Shown piece after piece: positions 12,160 through 53,094 of a stretch of DNA of 64,000 bases. A model generated the notes under the pieces. That model made no database searches. It saw only the letters and a program-made list of their open reading frames with translations, and had not been told where the DNA came from. Positions within the stretch are counted from its first letter, which is position 1; the number at the start of each line of letters is the position of its first letter. The translations under genes were made by a program, and so were the position numbers. This stretch comes from Symbiodinium sp. CCMP2592 (taxonomy: Eukaryota; Sar; Dinophyceae; Suessiales; Symbiodiniaceae), in NCBI GenBank assembly GCA_905221615.1, contig CAJNDT010005779.1, positions 775,752-839,751 of the forward strand, given 5' to 3'.

Positions 12160-13400
12160 AAATTTCAGCGCCCTGTGCTGTTCGGGCTGGGTTTCGAGGT
12201 TGTGTTCTAGTGCCCTGACCTGCCGGGTGCGGGCGTCGGAGAGGGGTTGGACAAATTTACTAGGGCCACTAGAAAGATCGTAGTAGACGGTAATCAGGCA
12301 GAGTGTCCGCATGTTGTGCCGGCCGCGAAGCTGCGGCTTTGAACTTTCATGCCATGCCCAGACACCAAAAGTAGGTAAATAATGGCCCGAAACGTATCGA
12401 ACATCTACAATTCCAGATATTTTTGGGGTCCAGGTAAAGGCGAGAAACCTCGTGCCCTTCTTCGGTCGCTCATGTGAAATATACTGCGAGCAGCGAGCAC
12501 AATTTGTTTTGCAACCTTCCAGATTTTTTTCGCTTGGGAAGGGTACAAGGGCCTAACAGATCTGGAGCTCCAGGGCTTCACTTCTAATTTTGGGCTCCTT
12601 TAAAGGGGTCTATAAAGGTTACTATAAGGGATCCATAAGGGTACTATTATAATGTGGGAACCCTGGTTAAGAAACCTTGGGCCTTCATTAGGGTTCCTTA
12701 TATGAATCCTACTATCTTTGGGGTTATAGGCCCTGGATTTCTCAAGCAGGTTCCTACATTACAACCCCTGATACACGCTGCTGTTTGGCCTTTCTTGTTG
12801 CTGTGTGTTAGCTTCACTCGTCAGGCCTCCAACCACATGCCTCGCTTGCATCGTCTGAGTGCGAACGCCGAAACCCTAAACCCTGAAACCTGGGTCACTG
12901 TTGAGGCGGGTGCTGCGTCGGCTCCTCCGCTCTTGGCGCGGGTCTCAAGTTTCCGTGGCTGGGGAGCGAGCTCCGTCACAGACATGTGTTACATTCGGTG
13001 CTACTCAAACAACGAATGCCCACCCTAAACTCCTATTAGTACTAGTAGCCGGGTAGGTAACCTTTAACCTTTTTGGCGCATAGTAACCTAACATGATAGC
13101 AAAGGTTAACCTTTTGGGGGCTATGGCTTTAAGGTACTGAGCGCCTAAGAGCTCCTAAGCCCATAGCAAAGAGCCAGCAGCTGAGGTTTACAACTATTTG
13201 GGTACCTTGGACCCTTATACCTTAAACCCTATAGAACCTTTTTATGGTACCCTTATAGAACTAATATGGTACCCTTTACATGGAAAGAGTCAGCTGAGGT
13301 TTACAGCCACGCAGGCCGCAATTTTCCAGCCTACGAAGGCTTCTGGTCGAAGTATTACGAGGAGAGCTTCTCAATGCGCTGCATCCTGCACGGTTTGAAG
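12160..13400. other. Non-coding stretch with repeats
   Basis: Contains a copy of the dispersed GCGCCGAAA repeat (about 12820-12890), a family-4 element (13051-13120) and inverted GGTACC-rich blocks at 12600-12770 and 13195-13290. One reading after GTTGAG|GCG (AGAASAPPLLARVSSF, near 12905) is possible but ambiguous in frame. Confidence 0.5.
13051..13120. mobile_element. Family-4 element (TAGGTAACCTTTAACC)
   Basis: TAGGTAACCTTTAACCTTTTT at the left and AAAGGTTAACCTTTTGGGGG at the right. Same head as the copies at 19208, 44551 and 56880. Confidence 0.65.
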
Positions 13401-13929: not shown

Positions 13930-14564
13930 GTACCGTATAGTACTCCAACGACGAGAGGATATGTATTGGTTTAGATATAACTACGAAGTTAAATGGTTGG
14001 TTATCTAGCTAGGTAACCAAATAGATAATTAGACGATTTTGATAGTCTTAGAGATAGGTTGGTAGAGGTGGAGATAGTTCGATCGAATGTATTGTTTACG
14101 GCCCAGCTCACCTGTCGAGGAAGTGTCGAGTTCAATCTTGGGGTTTGCTCTGCCCAGACTCTCGTGACATCTTGGAACCTGTTCAGACATCCCGTGCCAG
14201 TACGGTTGCCTGGACGATGAGCCCTAAACGGCCCTGAACCCTCAGGAATCCTACTTGTCGGATTTAGGGTTTCGGCGCTCGCACTCGGAAAATCCAGGCA
14301 AGGCATACAGTTCGACGTCTGCTGAGTGAGACTGCAACCTATGTGAGAATGACTCACAACAACTGAGCCCAATACCGACGTGGAATACCCCAAACAGAAC
14401 AGAAACTCTTCCCGGCCAAGGTCCCAAGCTATAAGTTGCACCTAGTTGTCGGACCTAGGACCCTACCATCTCTAGATCGCTTCCTTGGGGAGTCCGGGTG
14501 CGAACAAAGGCCATAGGGATGATACAGCGGAAGATCAGGGGTTTTGCGGCACTAAACTCCTAAA

Positions 14565-14660
14565 CTGCAAGCTCTAAACCCATAGACCCTAAACCCCTAA
14601 ACCTTAAACCCCTAAACCCCTAAACTGCAAGCTCTAAACTCATAGACCCTAAACCCCTAA
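14565..14660. repeat. Interstitial telomere-like tract
   Basis: CCCTAAACCC heptamers in two near-identical sub-blocks each starting AAACTGCAAGCTCTAAAC. Confidence 0.85.
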
Positions 14661-14671
14661 GCTGTCGTTTC

Positions 14672-14735
14672 ACTTTACAGACGCGAACTCATATGCCTCG
14701 CCTGGATTGTCCGAGTGTCAGCGCCGAAACTGCAA
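14672..14735. repeat. Dispersed GCGCCGAAA repeat, copy
   Basis: GACGCGAACTCATATGCCTC, then GCCTGGATTGTCCGAGTGT, then CAGCGCCGAAA. Related copies: about 12820-12890, 14270-14325 (minus), 35563-35612 and 43340-43388. Usually adjoins CCCTAAA tracts. Confidence 0.85.
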
Positions 14736-15579
14736 GCTTTAAACTCAAACCCCCAAGTTTTCGGACCTCAGAGGCTTCCGTCACAGCGGCTGTCCGGCGC
14801 TTCGTCGGAGTGCCTCGTGCCGCAATCCCTAAAAGGTCCTAGGTAGTGTTATTGGGGGATACTTGTAGTTTCCCAAATCATAATCGTAATGCCTAATAGA
14901 GAAACCGCACATTCTACTACATAGGTGATTACTTTTGACCATGTGGGATTAGCAGCCTTGAGGGTTTCAGTGTCGGAGGTTTCGGGTTTTCGCGGCCTGG
15001 ATGCAAAAAAAGGTGTTTAAGGTTTAGGATTCAGGTTTTGGGGCTTGGGCTTTGGGGTTTTTGCAGGCCGGCGGTTCAGGGAATTTTTATAGGGTAGCAA
15101 TGGGTAGTACAAGGTTAATTCTTTTGCGTGTTCTACAGAGGCTTCCTGCCTGGTTTGCCTTTGCGCCTTCCTCACCTTTGGTTAGTAGGGAATGGAAGAA
15201 TGGTAGTAATAGTGGTTATAATTGTACCCCATTCCTCCATTCCCGACTAACCAGAGCTAAGCTTCTTCAACTCGGAGATTTTAGGGCCACGTCGCTGCTT
15301 CGGGGCTGCTTCCGAGTCGAGGTCGTAGCTTAAGGGGCGCGTATAGATAATTCTGAATTTGTGGCTCCTTTAATCCCTCAGAAACAGCTAAAATTGTAAT
15401 TTCTGCTAGGGGTCTGAATTCAGTATATGTAGGTGGGGTGCGGGGTTTGAGGGTGTTTTGGGACTGCCTTAAGGGCCTTATCCTTTAGGTTTCAGGTTGC
15501 CTTAGGCCCAAACAACCTACCTCTCTTCAGCACTTGGCAAGAAAGGTAGGTTTTTTGGAGGAGGTTTGGGTTTATGGAG

Positions 15580-34410: not shown

Positions 34411-35562
34411 GCCTGCATTTGGTCGAGTTGGCAGCTGATCGTCCTACCTAAACCCTAAACCTTATCTAGACCCCCAAGAGTAGGTAAAACAATGGCCCCA
34501 GCGTGCTTGTGGGGTCCCTATAAATCCCAAACCTATCGAGCTTTCCTCTGCAGAGTTTTTGTTTGCTCGGCTTCATCGCTGCCGGGACTCTGCTGCTGTT
34601 TTGGTCGTGATGATGCAGGAGTCTTGCCAGATTGAGGCTTCGACTTGGGTTTCCTTGTTGGGTAACTATTCGGGCTCTAAGGGGTTCAGGGTTTGGACTC
34701 AGTTTAGAGTTTTTGTTTCAGGGTTTTAGGCTTAGGGGTGCCGCGTCAGGCGAGACAAGTTCGGTCTTGATTTCGGTCACTCGGCTGCAAGAGAGGGTGC
34801 TGAACCAGCCTCCTTGATTGCGCGACAGTGCCATAGCTTTCCCAAGCAGCCGAAGCACTACAGTTGACATGAAGGAGCTGGGTCTGTGCAGCTGGCGCAG
34901 AAGAACGCCCGCTGTAGTCATATTACCATCTCCTGCTTAGCAGTTTGCAAGGTTTCCCCGTCGCAGAGGTAGCCCCCCCACTTGCCGCAGTTTTTTTGGA
35001 ACATAAGTTTGCAATCTTTGGCCTTGCAATGCTTTGCTGCGAGCAGTACAGTTCTCTTGAACGGTGCAGGTCGTCAGTTTCTACAATACATCGTAGACAT
35101 GGCCGTCGTCTTCTTATAACGTGCAGAGCCGCCTGGTGTTTGGGGAAGGTAAATACACATGTTGTCACAAAAAATCCTGTATAGTTTTGTCGTTCCAGAG
35201 CTCCTACATGGACATACCCTGTAAAACTATGCTAACTAAAGCCTGTTCCGTGATGGGCAACTGCACAGTCATCTTCCTGATGACGTTGCTGCTGATGCAA
35301 ACGATATGTTTGTTAAGACTGTTTGAGTTTGTAGAGCTCTTGGGTGCCAACCTACGGTACCAGCACCTTAAGCAGTTTCCAGGCCAGGGACGCAATGCAA
35401 CACACCTGTGCGGCTCAACTCTCCTATACAAATCCTGACCCCCAACCTTCAACCCAACATCAGTCTAGTGTGTTCTCTGCAGTGCGACTCAGGCGCCTAT
35501 GCGGGTGGTGCACGAATACGCACCTAAGCCCTAAATCCTGAACCCTAAACCCCTACCCTGCA

Positions 35563-35612
35563 GACGCGAGCCCATATGCCTCGCCTGGATTGTCCGAGTG
35601 TGAGCGCCGAAA
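35563..35612. repeat. Dispersed GCGCCGAAA repeat, copy
   Basis: GACGCGAGCCCATATGCCTC then GCCTGGATTGTCCGAGTGT then GAGCGCCGAAA, differing from the 14672 copy at few positions. Confidence 0.85.
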
Positions 35613-35653
35613 CCCCTATACTCGTACACCGTACCTCGGCACTACCCAGCGAG

Positions 35654-37848: not shown

Positions 37849-37916
37849 GATACGACCTATTGCAGATTGGCGATCTTCTTCGGGTGCTGCCGGGGGACGT
37901 GGTGCCGGTGGACGGG
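37849..37916 (+). CDS. P1B ATPase: A-domain exon (GDLLRVLPGD...VDG)
   Basis: After AAATGTCAG|GA the frame reads YDLLQIGDLLRVLPGDVVPV then DG. This is the actuator-domain beta strand pair (LLQxGDxLxVxPGxxxPVDG) found in every P1B ATPase. The reading stops at 37934, so a donor is needed near GACGGG|GAG (GA) or at G|GG. About eight residues (VVxxGxSxV) before the next exon are unaccounted for, suggesting a micro-exon. Confidence 0.75.
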
Positions 37917-39200: not shown

Positions 39201-39201
39201 T

Positions 39202-39310
39202 GGGAGCTACCGACAATAGGGGACCCCGATATAGTACCCTAAAGAGTAGGATCCTTTCTATAAGGACCCCCCAAATACCGTACCCCCTCATTTTCGGAAC
39301 CCCCCCCCCA
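39202..39310. mobile_element. Family-1 element ending in poly-C
   Basis: GGGAGCTACCGACAATAGGG left; CTCATTTTCGGAA then ten C right. The usual ACTCCC end is replaced by the C run. Its right part is inside the 248-bp duplication. Confidence 0.75.
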
Positions 39311-39487
39311 TATGAAGGTCTTAAGGGTGGATGTTGCAATAAGCGAGATTTATGATCGATGTCATTGTGGGTTTAGGATTTAGGGGTTTAGGGGTTAAGG
39401 GTTAAGGCTAAGGGGTTTAGGGATTTTTAAGGTTTAGGGTTTATCATGCTACTTTGACAACCCCCCACGGTTTTTGGTGGCTATGCT
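39241..39487 (+). repeat. Left copy of ~248-bp direct repeat flanking the ORF cassette
   Basis: From AAAGAGTAGGATCC to GTGGCTATGCT. Identical by eye to 43386-43634 except for two homopolymer lengths (10 versus 13 C; 6 versus 5 C). Contains the right part of a family-1 element, a TTTAGGG-rich stretch and a remnant resembling a family-2 end (TTTGACAACC). No TG...CA ends or flanking target duplication, so not an ordinary LTR. Confidence 0.9.
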
Positions 39488-39791
39488 CGCTAGTGTATGA
39501 TCATCCCTGTTCGGTCCTCTTTATGTGTTGTTCTGTTGTTGTTCTTGCTCCAATAAGTACGCACAGGCCAATGCATGAGAATATGAATTTGTTGCATGAA
39601 GCATGAGGGAGGTCCGTAAGTGATTCCCGTTATTATGCAAGAAATGCATGACATCCTCTGCCTGCACGACAGTCTAGTGACGCGCGAGAAATCCCGCCGG
39701 TGAAATCACCCAGCGTGAGTGAGTTTCTACTTCGCTTTTGTACCGCTCGAGCTAGTGACATTTGCAGCCTTCAGCCTCAAAGTCACTGGTA

Positions 39792-40430
39792 ATGGGATAT
39801 ATACTTGACACTTTGCCTACGGCAATGCCGTTTGACATTGCGAATGGCCTAGATGAGGGTCTGCCTTTTCAGGTAGGTCTTGCTTCGGGGATCCTGATCT
39901 TCTTGCATGGGTGCCTTAGTTTAGGTCTGTGGTTTAGGAGAGTTGTCCAACATTTGTATCATTTCATGGTCACACATTTTGTGGTGTCGAGTGAAGTGGA
40001 TCAGGAGAAACTTGAAGCAGTTGCACGCATAGACCGTAGGGTTGCCAAACTGGAATACCAGCTTTACGATCTTAAAGAATTCCTACTAAAGCTTGAAATT
40101 GAAATGAGGGACCTTAAGGCCACTGCAACGGAAGCCATTGAGCTACCCAATAATGTATGTGAGGTCTTGGTTGATATTGAGGACTCGATGAAAACCCTTG
40201 CTCCAAAACTCGATAGACTAGTGAGCTCTGTTAAACATCGTGTTGACAATCAGAACTCGGTACTGCAGTGCATGTACTATTCACTTGACGAGCACTTCAT
40301 GCTGCTATGCGATGTCGCCAACATCCTAGAAGAGGCTATTGACCCCACCTGTCCCTATCCTTTTACCCTCAGACTCGCCAATCGCCCCAGAGGACAGGGA
40401 CCACGACCTAGGAACAGACAATATTACTAA
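39792..40430 (+). CDS. Cassette ORF1: membrane-anchored coiled-coil protein
   Basis: First of four closely packed + strand ORFs. Starting at the ATG at 39792 the product is 212 residues. A hydrophobic segment (about 27-50, VGLASGILIFLHG onward) could span a membrane. It is followed by a charged heptad-like region (about 70-115, KLEAVARIDRRVAKLEYQLY then KEFLLKLEIEMRDL) that should form a coiled coil, and the end is basic (RPRGQGPRPRNRQYY). No intron is needed, unlike every other gene here. Position and features suggest a structural or particle/membrane-associated protein of a mobile element, but no family is recognised. The open frame begins upstream at 39762, without an ATG. Confidence 0.7.
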   Translation: MGYILDTLPTAMPFDIANGLDEGLPFQVGLASGILIFLHGCLSLGLWFRRVVQHLYHFMVTHFVVSSEVDQEKLEAVARIDRRVAKLEYQLYDLKEFLLKLEIEMRDLKATATEAIELPNNVCEVLVDIEDSMKTLAPKLDRLVSSVKHRVDNQNSVLQCMYYSLDEHFMLLCDVANILEEAIDPTCPYPFTLRLANRPRGQGPRPRNRQYY

Positions 40431-40491
40431 GATGCATTAGCGCCCACAGGCAGCTCTGCTCGAAGTATACTTGCTGTTCCTGGTCCTAGGT

Positions 40492-41013
40492 ATGAATGTG
40501 CACATGGCCACGTCTTGTCAGGAGGTGAGACGAGGGGTCATATGGGCACGGGAACTACATGATGCATTAATTGCCTTCCCGCCCGAACTCACATATGTAG
40601 CAGCTTCCCGATTGCTCACTCGACTACGACGTATGCGAGCGATCCTTCCCATTTTGAACTCCACTAGCATCCTCTGGCCATTTTGGTGTGCTATTTGGGA
40701 TGTTTGTATTGCTATTCTGGTGGCACATGAGGAAGATCGCCCGGATACGGTGTCTATCAACGACAATAACATGTTATACCGGTGGGCTGAGAACACTGCA
40801 AGACGGATTTACATGAGTCTTGATGATTACAGTGGTATCTATTCGGGATGGAATTTACCCCTATCTTGGCCTAGTGGTGAAACCCGTCCACTCTGCGAAC
40901 GCATTTCTTTTGTCCCCAAACCTCTCCCTTCCCTTGAAGAGCACTATAGGCTCCTACACGCAGTACCACCAAGGCTCATGACAAGACAAGCAAGCTTCAG
41001 CACTACACTTTAG
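40492..41013 (+). CDS. Cassette ORF2: unrecognised protein, related to ORF3
   Basis: Starts at the ATG at 40492, 61 bp after the ORF1 stop, in a different frame; 173 residues. It contains a helix ELHDALIAFPPELTYVAASR, a hydrophobic stretch around ILWPFWCAIWDVCIAILVAH and later RWAENTARRIYMSLDD. By eye it aligns with ORF3: PP-x3-(V/I)AxxxL near the start, VS...W...R-x-(I/L)-Y-x-S later. The two may be ancient tandem duplicates. No enzyme motif seen. Confidence 0.65.
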   Translation: MNVHMATSCQEVRRGVIWARELHDALIAFPPELTYVAASRLLTRLRRMRAILPILNSTSILWPFWCAIWDVCIAILVAHEEDRPDTVSINDNNMLYRWAENTARRIYMSLDDYSGIYSGWNLPLSWPSGETRPLCERISFVPKPLPSLEEHYRLLHAVPPRLMTRQASFSTTL

Positions 41014-41017
41014 TGTC

Positions 41018-41482
41018 ATGGCATTATCGCCCTCTGTGTTCCGAGAACGCTTGCTGTCGGAGCTGCGGTCGATGCCACCGGGAGTGTCACGGATAGCTGT
41101 GGATTCATTGTTTAGTCTTATTGCCCGTAATCGTCACACTTATCCTTTAGGAGGCTATTCTTTGTTGCATGATGTTATGATGGATGCTTCACCTTTCTGG
41201 CTGAATCCACAGAACGATCCCGTGTCTCCCCGAATCAGAGAAAATACCGCTAGAGAAGTCAATGATTGGGTATTGTGGGTTGAGCGTAAGCTGTACTCTA
41301 GTGTGGTTGAGCTCTCGCGATCAGAAGCTCCCGAAGTGAACACAAGCTCTGAGGATGAAGATCGTATTTCCTGCACTGTCTATCACTCCAACTCTAGATC
41401 GGTTGCTTCCCAAACCTCGTCATCTTTTGAGCTTGGCTCCAGGGAGCGAGAGCTCTCACGCCACCATGGAAGCCCCAACTGA
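41018..41482 (+). CDS. Cassette ORF3: unrecognised protein, related to ORF2
   Basis: ATG at 41018, four bases after the ORF2 stop, in the third frame; 154 residues. The N-terminal part has ERLLSELRSMPPGVSRIAVD and NTAREVNDWVLWVERKLYSS, similar in layout to ORF2. The C-terminal third is Ser/Glu-rich and probably disordered (SSEDEDRISC; SRSVASQTSSSF). It overlaps the ORF4 start by 17 bp. Function unknown. Confidence 0.65.
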   Translation: MALSPSVFRERLLSELRSMPPGVSRIAVDSLFSLIARNRHTYPLGGYSLLHDVMMDASPFWLNPQNDPVSPRIRENTAREVNDWVLWVERKLYSSVVELSRSEAPEVNTSSEDEDRISCTVYHSNSRSVASQTSSSFELGSRERELSRHHGSPN

Positions 41483-42338
41483 TTCGGGGACTAGCTCGGT
41501 AGAACAGATGAGGCGCTCTATCTTAGAAAGCTTTGACCGAGTTAGTGTAAAACACAAGGCTTCAGAAGACGGTGGTCAGGTCCTTCACCTAGGTTTGAAT
41601 CCTAGGGACTTATCTAGGCTTACCTCGGCGACGGCCCCGTGCATGCACCTTCTTAGCCTGATCACCGCCTTCCTTCACAACATAGCCCCAAATCATAAGT
41701 ATAGCTCAGTGATAATTCGTGACAGTGCCGGCAAGGACATTCATAAGGACCTTAGGAACTCTCATTATCCTCAGGGGATTGTCCGACTTTCTCCTTTTGA
41801 AAACGGTGGTCTCTGGGTTGAATCCCCCACTGGCTTTAGTATTAGGTCGTATATGGGGGTCAACATTGCTGGCACAGTCTGCGATATCCCTGGGGACCGA
41901 CTCCTTATGTTTAGCGGTAAACGTCTCCTCCACTGCACTGAGCCCTGGCTGGGGCGCCGGGTAGTCCTTGTTGCTTATACCCTCATGGGCACCATGTCGA
42001 TCCCCAGGGAAATAGAAGAGAGATTGCAAGCCATAGGAATTCAGACACCAACCAGCAGCGAAATTGAATATTTCTTTCAGCACCCCGTTGGGCCTGGTCA
42101 ACCCACTCAGCGTAAACTCTCTTTTCGCAAACGGACCGGTGTCTGGCAAGCTGGACGTCTCAACCTGTTGCCTCATGAACCGTCAATAGAGGTAGATAGC
42201 CAAGAGAATGGTGATGTTGTTCAGCTACCTTCTCAACTTGATGATTGTGTCTCTTCGGTTCCTCCCCATGAGACGGTTCATGACAGCGACTCGGCAGAGA
42301 CCCTCATGCTTCCTAGGCTAGCGGGAGATGGTGTGTAA
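41466..42338 (+). CDS. Cassette ORF4: 2OG-Fe(II) dioxygenase-like protein
   Basis: 290 residues from the ATG at 41466, in the context GCCACCATGG, overlapping ORF3. The centre carries the double-stranded beta-helix dioxygenase signature: H93-x-D95 in IHKDLRNS, a GGLWVE strand at 114-119, a distal H156 in LLHCTEPW and basic residues R164/R165 in LGRRVVLVAYT. HxD...H binds Fe(II) and the Arg about eight residues later binds 2-oxoglutarate. The HxD-x-x-N...F-x-x-GG-x-LW...H-x-x-x-PW-x-G-x-R layout resembles the TET/JBP-like and dinoflagellate mobile-element oxygenases I know, some of which act on nucleic-acid bases. The C-terminal 110 residues are unassigned. The substrate is not deducible. The frame is open from 41355, but the ATG fits better. 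Confidence 0.72.
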   Translation: MEAPTDSGTSSVEQMRRSILESFDRVSVKHKASEDGGQVLHLGLNPRDLSRLTSATAPCMHLLSLITAFLHNIAPNHKYSSVIIRDSAGKDIHKDLRNSHYPQGIVRLSPFENGGLWVESPTGFSIRSYMGVNIAGTVCDIPGDRLLMFSGKRLLHCTEPWLGRRVVLVAYTLMGTMSIPREIEERLQAIGIQTPTSSEIEYFFQHPVGPGQPTQRKLSFRKRTGVWQAGRLNLLPHEPSIEVDSQENGDVVQLPSQLDDCVSSVPPHETVHDSDSAETLMLPRLAGDGV

Positions 42339-42349
42339 CGCACCCGTAC

Positions 42350-43345
42350 ATAGACTAAACCAAAGCATAGATGTTCCCGAACAGACTCATTATTGTGTAG
42401 ACTCATGGTAGCTCCATGCCTTTTAGTCCAAACCACTAACCCACGCCCGCGCGCCATGGCTTGCGAGTGTCCACTGCGCTTTATGCCTACGTCTGCATGC
42501 TGCATGGAGGAGTATGCCTGCAACGATGGCAGAAACATGTTGCGTTCAGCGGTTGGCCATGGTGATGGCATGCTCTAGAACTCACCCTGATTGCACCAGT
42601 GGAAAGCATTGCTTTGATGCGGGCAGTATGCTGTGCATGGATCGTGGCATACTGTTACAGGGAGAAACACTGTCGGACGATGACTGGAATGAGCTGCCTG
42701 ATGCTGGGTATGTGGTCGAGTGCCTGCAATTCCGACAGACAAGAAAATGGCAACACTGAATACAGGTTGGGGCACCTGCATGTGCATGATTTGCTGCATG
42801 AGTTGTTGAGTGTGGAGAATTCAGCCGAGCCAGCCTGGGCAGTTTGCCTTGCGAGAGTCTGCTACGCGCAGCACATCCGAACACAGAATGGTGTTGGGCA
42901 ATGGAGCACCTGATTGAGAATACATACTTTGCACGTCGCCCGCCGCCTGAAATTTTGCTGCAACTGGTCCCTGTGGGGTATACTATGGCTGCATGAATTC
43001 GTAATTCGTTTGCATGCTCTGCAAGTGCATGGTGCATGCATAGTCCACGCAAATCCATGCCTCTCAATCGCCGTGTCACCACGTTGTTTCACCCCGCCAG
43101 TAACGTGTTGTTTGGGAATGCTAACTAGTGTATTCCGCTGTGATTGGTAAATGCCGATCCCCGGGACTCTTCATTCAGGATGAGTCTCTCTAGTGCAGAT
43201 GTCTAGGCCCTTGCAGTTATAGTGTCTTGGGCGTGTAAGGGCCTAGGCTGAGGAAGGGTCACTTAGCACAGTTACTTCATCTGTTCCCAAGTTGTGATAG
43301 TTTCTGATGCTCCCTCTTAGAGATGTCTCACTTTGTACGACTCCG
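42350..43345. other. 3' part of the cassette insert
   Basis: About 1 kb rich in GCATG and TGCATGC words, without CCCTAAA tracts, so it appears to belong to the insert. Both strands have ORFs up to 166 codons, none recognisable. The + reading CMDRGILLQGETLSDDDWNE (to a stop at 42759) is the most protein-like. Confidence 0.5.
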
Positions 43346-43388
43346 AACCACATGCCTCGCCTGGATTGTCCGAGTGTGAGCGCCGAAA
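43340..43388. repeat. Dispersed GCGCCGAAA repeat, copy at the insert's right junction
   Basis: CACATGCCTCGCCTGGATTG then TCCGAGTGTGAGCGCCGAAA; runs directly into the right direct repeat at AAAGAGTAGG. Confidence 0.85.
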
Positions 43389-43634
43389 GAGTAGGATCCT
43401 TTCTATAAGGACCCCCCAAATACCGTACCCCCTCATTTTCGGAACCCCCCCCCCCCCATATGAAGGTCTTAAGGGTGGATGTTGCAATAAGCGAGATTTA
43501 TGATCGATGTCATTGTGGGTTTAGGATTTAGGGGTTTAGGGGTTAAGGGTTAAGGCTAAGGGGTTTAGGGATTTTTAAGGTTTAGGGTTTATCATGCTAC
43601 TTTGACAACCCCCACGGTTTTTGGTGGCTATGCT
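43386..43634 (+). repeat. Right copy of ~248-bp direct repeat
   Basis: Same extent as 39241-39487. The left portion of the family-1 element present before the left copy is absent here, so the duplication starts inside that element. Confidence 0.9.
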
Positions 43635-43792: not shown

Positions 43793-43915
43793 TACTTGGA
43801 AGGGCAGGGGACTTAGTAAGTAGGTTGTAAGTAGAGTTATAAGTACCCTAAATGGAGATACCCCAATTATAACCCTACTTATAAGCTACTTACTAAGTCC
43901 CCTGCCCTTCCAAGT
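43793..43915. mobile_element. Family-6-like element with long perfect arms
   Basis: TACTTGGAAGGGCAGGGGAC continuing TTAGTAAGTAG, and its exact complement at the right; core rich in TTATAAGT. The best-preserved arms in the window (~31 bp). Confidence 0.88.
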
Positions 43916-44158
43916 AAACCCCATACCCGATAGCCCCATTCAGGTCCTGCAGCACCAGAAAGGCTACGCATCCCAAAACTCGTTTAACAAGGCCTCCATC
44001 ATGAGGCCCCTACTCCAAGCCCCCAAAAATAGGGAGACCCCCATGCCCCCCAATTCTATTCCTAAGGCCCTTAGCCCAACACACTTTGATCAGGCCCTTG
44101 GGGTTATGTAGTTTAACCTTAAACCCGAAACCCCTAAACCCTAAACCCCCGAAAGCAG

Positions 44159-44225
44159 GCGATGAGTCTCTGCTCACCGGCGAGTCCGTGCCAGTGAAGA
44201 AGGTGAAGGGTAGCCAGGTCGTAGG
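44159..44225 (+). CDS. P1B ATPase: A-domain exon with TGES
   Basis: After CGAAAGCAG|GC the frame reads DESLLTGESVPVKKVKGSQV then VG. TGES is the actuator-domain loop whose Glu drives dephosphorylation. DES(L/M)LTGES(V/L)PVxK is the hallmark of P1B pumps. The likely end is GTCGTA|GGC or G|GC; a GC donor again seems required, as the reading leaves homology after VVG. Confidence 0.8.
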
Positions 44226-45083: not shown

Positions 45084-45170
45084 ATGGATGCAGGAGCTTT
45101 GGCCCGCATCGGCGCGGACCAGGACTCCCCGAGTCTCGAGGTAAAGTTGACAGCACCCAGAGACTCCAAG
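45084..45170 (+). CDS. Small charged-protein gene, middle segment
   Basis: Frame MDAGALARIGADQDSPSLE to 45140, where GAG|GTAAAG is a good donor, or on to 45170 (VKLTAPRDSK), where the next inverted-repeat element begins. Which end is used cannot be told. Joins the readings before and after it by position only. Confidence 0.45.
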
Positions 45171-45317
45171 ATCCCTTAATTAAGGAATATTCCTTAAGTC
45201 ATAGTAGGATCCCGAATATGATTTAAGGAATATCCCTTAATTAAGGAATATTCCTTAAGTTATAGTAGGACCCCTAGTATGATTTAAGGAATATTCCTAA
45301 ATTAAGGGATATTCGAG
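45164..45317. mobile_element. Inverted-repeat element with internal TTAATTAAGGAATATTCC repeats
   Basis: AAGATCCCTTAATTAAGG left and AAATTAAGGGATATTCGAG right. The inner module AAGGAATATTCCTTAA is itself palindromic and repeated. It separates two protein-like segments. Confidence 0.8.
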
Positions 45318-45442
45318 TGGGGGCAATGACAGAATTGTCGGTCCCCAGTTCTGACGACGAGCGGAAGGACAGAGAGTTTGAATCAAGCTGCGCAAGACTG
45401 CAGACTATCTGTCTGGGCACCCTTGACACGCATAATGAGTAG
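45318..45442 (+). CDS. Small charged-protein gene, last exon
   Basis: After ATATTCGAG|TG the frame reads GAMTELSVPSSDDERKDREF then ESSCARLQTICLGTLDTHNE and stops (TAG, 45440). The acidic SSDDERKDREFESS part looks disordered. The stop makes this a terminal exon. Confidence 0.5.
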
Positions 45443-52445: not shown

Positions 52446-52622
52446 CCCCCGGATGCTGCACAAGAAGGCATCTTGAGTTTGTAATCCGTCCGCCTTTTGC
52501 GAGGTTTCTGGGTTTGAGCTGGAGTACGGGGTTATCAAGCTGGCAGGGTTCTGGGGGAATCCGAGGCGACCGATTTTAAACGCAACTTACACGGTGAGTT
52601 TCGGGGATGACCCCTTCCAAAG

Positions 52623-52873
52623 GCAGTGAAGAAAAGACAAATCAAATCTCACAGAGACTGGGCCGACCTGCTTGAAAACCAGGACCGACTTCTCAATACG
52701 CCACAAGATCCTGACTGGCGGGATGAAGCGGGTGATACTGCACTCATTCGGGCATGCGGTGAAGGGCATGTGGATACCGTCCGCTTGCTCCTGGAAGCGC
52801 GTGCGAACGTCAATGCCCAGAACAAGGAAGGCACTTCGCCTCTCATGGGTGCCGCAGCGATGGGGAGCCGCAT
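52623..52873 (+). CDS. UBL-ankyrin protein, ankyrin exon A
   Basis: After TTCCAAAG|GCA the frame reads AVKKRQIKSHRDWADLLENQ, then NTPQDPDWRDEAGDTALIRA, CGEGHVDTVRLLLEARANVN, AQNKEGTSPLMGAAAMGS. It contains one complete ankyrin repeat (DTALIRACGEGHVDTVRLLLEARANVN) and the start of a second. The donor CAT|GTTGCT at 52874 in phase 2 joins to 53103 so that the second repeat has exactly 33 residues, the canonical length. Ankyrin repeats are protein-binding scaffolds. Confidence 0.82.
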
Positions 52874-52970
52874 GTTGCTAGACATCAGTTTCATCAGGAG
52901 TTTCCGCTTATTTGGTTCAACAGACTTAGCCCTTCAGACACAGAAGAAGTCTTGTCTTGACGGTTTTTGC

Positions 52971-53094
52971 CCAGCTAGGTTCCTGAGTAGTGCCCTTTTG
53001 CCCTTTTTAGTTTAGGGTCCCCTTATTAAAACCAAATAGTAGGAAAAAGGGTAGCCTTATTATAAAGGGGTTATATACTCAGAAACCTAGCCAG
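52971..53094. mobile_element. Inverted-repeat element inside the ankyrin intron
   Basis: CAGCTAGGTTCCTGAGTAG left; ATACTCAGAAACCTAGCCAGC right. It ends eight bases before the acceptor AG (53101-53102). An alternative splice from TAG|GTTCC to CCTAG|CC also keeps frame but would insert ~40 residues in the repeat. Confidence 0.82.

What the first reader, a model, noticed from the sequence alone, without database searches (positions are those of the whole stretch)
39488..43385. Compact four-ORF cassette with a dioxygenase, inserted in an ATPase intron
Four intronless + strand ORFs are packed end to end (gaps of 61 and 4 bp, then a 17-bp overlap) in rotating frames, as in a virus or bacterial operon and unlike the rest of the window. 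ORF1 has a probable membrane anchor plus coiled coil, ORF2 and ORF3 are novel, ORF4 has a 2OG-Fe(II) dioxygenase signature (HxD, distal H, Arg). No reverse transcriptase, integrase, transposase or polymerase is visible, and the insert lacks the host-like CCCTAAA tracts. This could be an undescribed mobile element or endogenised virus-like unit carrying a nucleic-acid-modifying enzyme, or a fragment of a larger one.
Basis: partly seen in the sequence, partly recalled or inferred. Interest (0 to 1): 0.9.

Follow-up and report, generated by a model that had tools for sequence, protein, structure and literature searches.

The report
Hitch-hiking retroelement with dioxygenase gene
A 3.9-kb piece of DNA carrying four small genes, one of them a predicted iron-dependent dioxygenase, appears to have been copied through RNA into an intron of a dinoflagellate-like genome by borrowed retrotransposon machinery, which would make it an unusual protein-coding hitch-hiker.

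Summary
In detail: four intronless plus-strand ORFs (39792-42338) in a 3.9-kb insert within a P-type ATPase intron. The insert is flanked by 247/249-bp direct repeats differing only in C-run length. These duplicate pre-existing host DNA: the left copy continues a dispersed host repeat, and the right copy starts inside it exactly where the insert's 3' tail ends. That ~60-nt tail (…CGCCG) recurs four more times in the window without the ORFs, each time followed by AAA. Three copies have a recognisable target duplication (one weak); all three begin at CCCT|AAA. I read this as target-primed reverse transcription by a helper LINE preferring the telomere-like CCCTAAA. No reverse transcriptase, transposase or recombinase domain was found in what I scanned. 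ORF4 has invariant HxD…H…RR and a 2OG-Fe(II) dioxygenase fold; its only named 2OG sequence match is sub-threshold TET/JBP, in relatives. ORF1 is a helical rod, usually with an N-terminal hydrophobic segment. ORF1 and ORF4 relatives seem to share a contig twice. ORF2 has no detected relatives; ORF3 was barely searched. Closest published kind: SymbioLINE-Dnmt. The helper, substrate and genome-wide distribution are untested, because the genome search did not complete.

The parts
39488..43385 (+). whole inserted element (3.9 kb)
   Evidence: bounded by direct repeats; 3' end coincides with the end of the shared tail
39241..39487 (.). left target-site duplication, 247 bp, junction CCCT|AAAGAG
   Evidence: identical to the right copy except C-run lengths; junction
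43386..43634 (.). right target-site duplication, 249 bp, begins directly after CGCCG
   Evidence: starts inside the host repeat that continues upstream on the left
39201..39305 (.). host dispersed repeat (MITE/introner-like) in which the duplication begins
   Evidence: 7 other matches in the window at 75-87% identity, six over 100-106 aligned positions and one over 77, besides shorter ones
39792..40430 (+). ORF1, 212 aa: hydrophobic N-terminal segment, long helices, conserved C-terminus
   Evidence: 35 related proteins; alignment of 17 of them; model of two long helices, mean pLDDT 72.2, pTM 0.29
40492..41013 (+). ORF2, 173 aa, unknown
   Evidence: open frame only; no relatives among 59 candidates, no Pfam match
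41018..41482 (+). ORF3, 154 aa, unknown
   Evidence: open frame only; no Pfam match, no viral relatives; not searched in the large protein collection
41466..42338 (+). ORF4, 290 aa, 2OG-Fe(II) dioxygenase-like; start codon in GCCACCATGG, overlaps the ORF3 stop by 17 nt
   Evidence: 10 relatives; H93, D95, H156, R164, R165 invariant where present; fold matches
42339..43324 (+). 3' region, about 1 kb, no recognised domain
   Evidence: three open frames in it have no Pfam match; stretches with stops were not scanned
43325..43385 (+). shared 3' tail, about 60 nt, ending GAGCGCCG
   Evidence: BLAST and pattern matches; nhmmer E 1.8e-19 to 2.3e-16 for the 5 copies, which also built the profile
14643..14726 (+). 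tail-only insertion (84 nt) with 21-nt target duplication 14622-14642 / 14727-14747
35556..35609 (+). tail-only insertion (54 nt) with 9-nt target duplication 35547-35555 / 35610-35618
   Evidence: weak alone: 10 of 150 control positions score as high
14273..14332 (-). tail copy, right flank AAACCCTAAA, no convincing duplication
12811..12870 (+). tail copy, right flank AAACCCTAAA, no convincing duplication
37854..37916 (+). host P-type ATPase exon piece upstream of the insert
   Evidence: Pfam PF00122, E 0.011
44161..44223 (+). host P-type ATPase exon piece downstream of the insert
   Evidence: Pfam PF00122, E 6.7e-05

Best explanation
The insert is a non-autonomous non-LTR retroelement of a dinoflagellate-like genome. 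Shown: one 3.9-kb unit inserted with a ~247-bp duplication of pre-existing host sequence; its 3' end is a ~60-nt tail found on other, ORF-less insertions; the recognisable target duplications begin at CCCT|AAA; it encodes a member of a 2OG-Fe(II)-type dioxygenase family and a helical ORF1 with a hydrophobic N-terminal segment. Inferred: its multi-ORF RNA is bound through the tail by the reverse transcriptase of a separate LINE, whose endonuclease nicks the bottom strand opposite CCCT|AAA; [quoted passage not shown] Downstream ORFs may be made by re-initiation (4-nt gap, 17-nt stop/start overlap, strong start context at ORF4). The dioxygenase most likely oxidises methylated bases and counters host silencing, parallel to fungal TET/JBP transposons and opposite to SymbioLINE-Dnmt; this last step is the least certain.
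Against: No helper LINE or RT was found, and the genome search could not be run. A ~247-bp duplication is far longer than usual for LINEs (recalled). The 9-nt duplication is weak, the 21-nt one is matched or exceeded by 6 of 150 control positions, and two of five tail copies gave no convincing duplication. The tail copies with duplications sit near CCCTAAA-rich sequence, so the local rate of CCCT|AAA may exceed 7.5%. AAA could belong to the tail rather than the target. The tail does not fold better than shuffles. The ORF4 model is weak (mean pLDDT 52.9, 10 sequences) and Foldseek TM-scores by query length are only 0.25-0.38 for the listed PDB rows. TET/JBP matches are sub-threshold in 3 of 10 members, best E 0.01, and absent for the window protein. 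ORF2 has no relatives, and codon usage does not support ORF2 or ORF3. 'Multicopy' rests on cluster sizes, which may count several assemblies of one locus.
Confidence: 0.6

Rival explanations
1. Deletion derivative of an autonomous LINE. The four ORFs are the 5' part of a larger element whose RT ORF was lost between ORF4 and the tail; such a derivative would still move in trans.
For: About 1 kb without a recognised gene sits between ORF4 and the tail; dinoflagellate LINEs carry an extra enzyme ORF upstream of RT.
Against: No RT domain in the three open frames of the 3' region that were scanned. RT remnants in frames with stops were not tested.
Confidence: 0.22
2. A virus-derived unit: a small polycistronic viral RNA copied into the genome by host LINE machinery, as proposed for dinoRNAV insertions.
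For: Compact overlapping ORFs; LINE-mediated integration is proposed for dinoRNAV in Symbiodiniaceae (passages); viral 2OG enzymes share the fold, the best being from Aureococcus anophagefferens virus, E 2.6e-06.
Against: No relatives of ORF1, ORF3 or ORF4 in IMG/VR scans nor of ORF4 in phage records; no polymerase or capsid domain by Pfam in the four ORFs; no spliced-leader relic in the window; the 3' tail is also on ORF-less insertions; ORF1's model has no viral match at E<=0.001. ORF2 was not tried against viral contigs.
Confidence: 0.09
3. DNA-level integration: a circle bearing the 247-bp sequence recombined with the chromosome, or the unit is a non-autonomous tyrosine-recombinase element.
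For: Long near-identical direct repeats; P0005 continues into a C-terminus unlike the other family members that looks recombinase-like to me from memory.
Against: One repeat end coincides exactly with the end of the dispersed tail, and the repeat is host sequence; P0005 has no Pfam match at E<=0.1.
Confidence: 0.06
4. Exons of an ordinary host gene, or a chance run of ORFs.
For: The insert lies in a gene in sense orientation.
Against: ORFs in different frames with an overlap, a flanking duplication, widespread relatives, and 0 of 2000 random sequences with two or more such ORFs.
Confidence: 0.02

Closest known systems
SymbioLINE-Dnmt (de Mendoza et al. 2018, PMC5890265; section 6 and passages read)
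   Same: dinoflagellate LINE-type element with a DNA-modification-class enzyme in an upstream ORF, target duplications, conserved UTRs, no poly-A tail
   Different: no endonuclease/RT ORF found here; four ORFs; dioxygenase instead of methyltransferase; ~247-bp duplication
TET/JBP-carrying fungal DNA transposons (Kojima 2025, PMC12730594; abstract and passages read)
   Same: mobile element carrying a 2OG-Fe(II) enzyme, proposed there to counter silencing
   Different: those are DNA transposons including Helitrons; [quoted passage not shown] the TET/JBP match here is sub-threshold
SART1/TRAS1 telomere-repeat LINEs (PMC7265360; passages read)
   Same: insertion at a telomere-repeat motif; 3'-UTR-dependent movement of another RNA in trans shown for SART1
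   Different: autonomous silkworm elements on (TTAGG)n arrays; here scattered heptamers and no RT seen
R9 rotifer LINE (title seen in the reference list of PMC2861651; its 126-bp figure is recalled)
   Same: exceptionally long target duplication in a non-LTR element
   Different: rDNA-specific

Membership tests
Non-LTR (LINE/SINE-type) retroelement | target-site duplications of variable length | tested here: met
   247/249, 21 and 9 nt for three of five tail copies; the 9-nt one is weak
Non-LTR (LINE/SINE-type) retroelement | fixed 3' end shared by copies of different length | tested here: met
   tail in 5 copies, all ending CGCCG then AAA
Non-LTR (LINE/SINE-type) retroelement | own or partner reverse transcriptase with endonuclease | tested here: inconclusive
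   none by Pfam in ORF1-4 or in the other window ORFs scanned; genome search did not complete
LTR retrotransposon | terminal repeats belong to the element | tested here: not met
   the repeat is host sequence that continues upstream only on the left
2OG-Fe(II) dioxygenase superfamily | HxD...H triad plus 2OG-binding Arg | tested here: met
   invariant in the 7, 10 and 9 sequences that cover the sites
2OG-Fe(II) dioxygenase superfamily | double-stranded beta-helix fold | tested here: met
TET/JBP (PF12851) | sequence profile match above the curated cut-off | tested here: not met
   best 15.5 bits against 34.9; 3 of 10 members at E<=1, not the window protein
TET/JBP (PF12851) | oxidation of 5mC or T in DNA | not testable with these tools
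   needs an enzyme assay
SymbioLINE-Dnmt | DNMT ORF plus endonuclease/RT ORF | tested here: not met
   neither domain by Pfam in ORF1-4

The most novel reading that the evidence does not exclude
The first RT-less retroelement family that encodes its own multi-protein cassette, including a TET/JBP-type dioxygenase, and is copied into telomere-like CCCTAAA motifs by a helper LINE: a hitch-hiker that pays its way by erasing or rewriting DNA modification at the sites where it and its helper live, opposing the DNA-methylating dinoflagellate LINEs.
Probability: 0.22. Interest if true: 0.82.

Novelty: new variant of a known kind. Interest (0 to 1): 0.62.

Why it matters
Non-autonomous LINE partners are normally short and non-coding (established knowledge, recalled). 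A multi-ORF, enzyme-encoding element that seems to lack RT but carries a LINE-type tail would show that such partners can carry protein cassettes. A dioxygenase would be the counterpart of the DNA methyltransferases known in dinoflagellate LINEs, and would extend dioxygenase capture from DNA transposons to retroelements. It also offers a reason why the telomere-like heptamer matters for insertion in these introns.

Tried and rejected
Endogenous virus: rejected as main reading. LTR element: rejected because the direct repeats are host sequence. Retrogene with spliced leader: no DinoSL with up to 3 mismatches, nor its 14-nt core with up to 2. ORF2 and ORF3 as duplicates of each other: no significant similarity. 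RNA structure: none of six stretches folded clearly better than shuffles (z -0.44 to 0.97). Rfam: nothing at gathering score in the window; one sub-threshold match, DUF805b, E 0.035, in the left flanking repeat at 39216-39252, not used. tRNA-derived head: no tRNA found, bacterial settings. PDB sequence profile of ORF4: no match at E<=10. PHROGs: no match at E<=0.1; NCBIfam: one match of the window protein at E 0.055, an RNA-binding protein model far below its cut-off. ORF1 in Pfam: scattered weak matches, several to coiled-coil-type families, best E 0.00022 in one of 18 members, not used. GTDB genome scans with ORF1 and ORF4: no relatives. The collection scans may leave out records of the window's own or a very near genome, as their answers say. 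P0005's extra C-terminus as a tyrosine recombinase: recalled impression only, Pfam found nothing.

Literature: no report of a TET/JBP or 2OG enzyme in a retrotransposon or dinoflagellate element among the papers listed (20 of 78 shown; 7 of 7; 1 of 1). No dinoflagellate LINE targeting telomere-like repeats among those listed (15 of 734; 12 of 306; 12 of 23; 0 found). (10 of 14 shown) was for long target duplications. Listings were read as titles and abstract starts; of six papers I saw more: PMC5890265 (passages, section 6), PMC12730594 (abstract, outline, passages), and passages of PMC7265360, PMC2861651, PMC10235124 and PMC11453091.
Full report
What is there. Four plus-strand ORFs of 212, 173, 154 and 290 aa run from 39792 to 42338. 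Their number is far above chance: 0 of 2000 Markov sequences of insert length had two or more ATG-started ORFs of at least 150 aa on one strand. The insert's minus strand also has two such ORFs, one opposite ORF4 and one opposite the 3' region; the latter has no Pfam match. The host context is an intron of a P-type ATPase: exon pieces at 37854-37916 and 44161-44223 match neighbouring parts of Pfam E1-E2_ATPase, below its cut-off. No tool names the organism; 'dinoflagellate' rests on the one relative with an organism name, P0045 from Symbiodinium sp. CCMP2592, and on TTTAGGG-like repeats, the reported dinoflagellate telomere unit (passages).

The ends. Direct repeats of 247 bp (39241-39487) and 249 bp (43386-43634) flank the insert and are identical except for the lengths of two C runs. 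They are not LTRs. The left repeat continues upstream into 39201-39305, which matches seven other places in the window at 75-87% identity (six over 100-106 aligned positions, 19525 over 77) besides shorter matches; most of those copies have inverted ends. The right repeat starts in the middle of that unit. So the repeat is older host DNA duplicated by the insertion. Its near-identity suggests a recent insertion, in line with four open ORFs.

The tail. The last ~60 nt before the right repeat recur at 14667-14726 (+), 14273-14332 (-), 35550-35609 (+) and 12811-12870 (+), without the ORFs. BLAST similarity does not reach upstream of 43325. The profile was built from these five copies, so its E-values are not independent; independent evidence is the BLAST and a 23-nt core, which matches the element and three of the four others with up to 3 mismatches against 0 in 100 shuffles. 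All five copies end CGCCG followed by AAA. Sequence beginning at that AAA recurs upstream as 247, 21 (nearly exact) and 9 nt for three of the five; the other two gave nothing convincing. Of 150 random control positions, 6 scored at least as high as the 21-nt case and 10 as high as the 9-nt case, because the window is repeat-rich; no such control was run for the 247-bp case. The strength lies in the fixed starting point. All three left junctions read CCCT|AAA; on the plus strand 7.5% of AAA triplets are preceded by CCCT, though the rate near the two short copies may be higher. The other two copies have the right flank AAACCCTAAA.

Mechanism. A fixed 3' end, variable duplications, very short tail-only copies and a shared target motif are the marks of target-primed reverse transcription. 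No RT, endonuclease, transposase or recombinase domain was found by Pfam in the four ORFs, in three open frames of the 3' region, or in the other window ORFs scanned; only a part of the 53 stop-to-stop frames of at least 110 aa was scanned. The simplest model is a helper LINE in trans, as shown for SART1, where the 3' UTR lets the helper move a foreign mRNA into telomeric repeats (passages). A ~247-bp duplication is unusual; a long one is on record for the rotifer element R9 (title in a reference list). The ORF spacing (4-nt gap, then 17-nt overlap with GCCACCATGG at ORF4) would suit re-initiation; this is inference.

ORF1. 35 relatives; I aligned 17 of them with the window protein and left out 18, most of them 208-aa hits of which the three I read (P0017, P0022, P0024) are nearly identical to P0016. 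Of the 18 aligned sequences, 12 have a 19-residue segment of mean hydropathy at least 1.6, all in the N-terminal half; the other six score lower. The C-terminal stretch ending PYPFTLRLAxRPRGxGxRPxxRxYY is strongly conserved among most members that reach it. The model is two long helices (mean pLDDT 72.2, pTM 0.29). It could be an RNA-binding or membrane-docking partner; this is a guess.

Recurrence. P0001 (ORF4) and P0012 (ORF1) are each listed on one contig of 12,914 bases; P0005 (ORF4) and P0033 (ORF1) list 509,567 bases as longest contig. These are most simply the same contigs, but they could not be opened. ORF2 found nothing among 59 candidates. ORF3 was searched only in Pfam and viral contigs. 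Large cluster sizes suggest many copies, but may count several assemblies of one locus.

Comparison. SymbioLINE-Dnmt (section 6 read) is the nearest kind: dinoflagellate LINEs with a DNA methyltransferase ORF, target duplications, conserved UTRs and no poly-A. This element differs by lacking a detected RT and by carrying a dioxygenase. [quoted passage not shown] The papers listed showed no report of one in dinoflagellates; they cover only the held library. I rate it a new variant of a known kind.

Limits. The genome search did not complete, so copy number, the helper, full length and the empty site are untested. Everything about the tail rests on one 64-kb window.

Noticed in passing
window 1-64000: CCCTAAA/TTTAGGG occurs 149 times against about 14 expected from a first-order Markov model, in every 4-kb bin of the window but not inside the insert.
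   Followed up: partly
26320, 50428(-), 51137, 11456(-), 47876(-), 19525(-), 23073, 39201: A family of roughly 100-bp repeats, most with inverted ends near GGGAGTTTCCGAAAA / TTTTCGGAAACTCCC; looks like a MITE or introner family.
   Followed up: partly
43793-43916 and 45163-45318: Other strong inverted repeats (94% over 50 nt; 83% over 78 nt), possibly further hairpin-type elements.
   Followed up: no
P0005, from about residue 290: A C-terminal extension unlike other ORF4 relatives; reminded me of a tyrosine recombinase, but Pfam gave no match.
   Followed up: partly
P0009: Gene model in which the C-terminal half of an ORF4 relative is fused to an ion-channel domain (PF00520): exonisation of a copy or a mis-joined gene model.
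   Followed up: no
52611-53015: Open frame with ankyrin repeats (PF12796, E 9.5e-11), probably a host gene exon.
   Followed up: no
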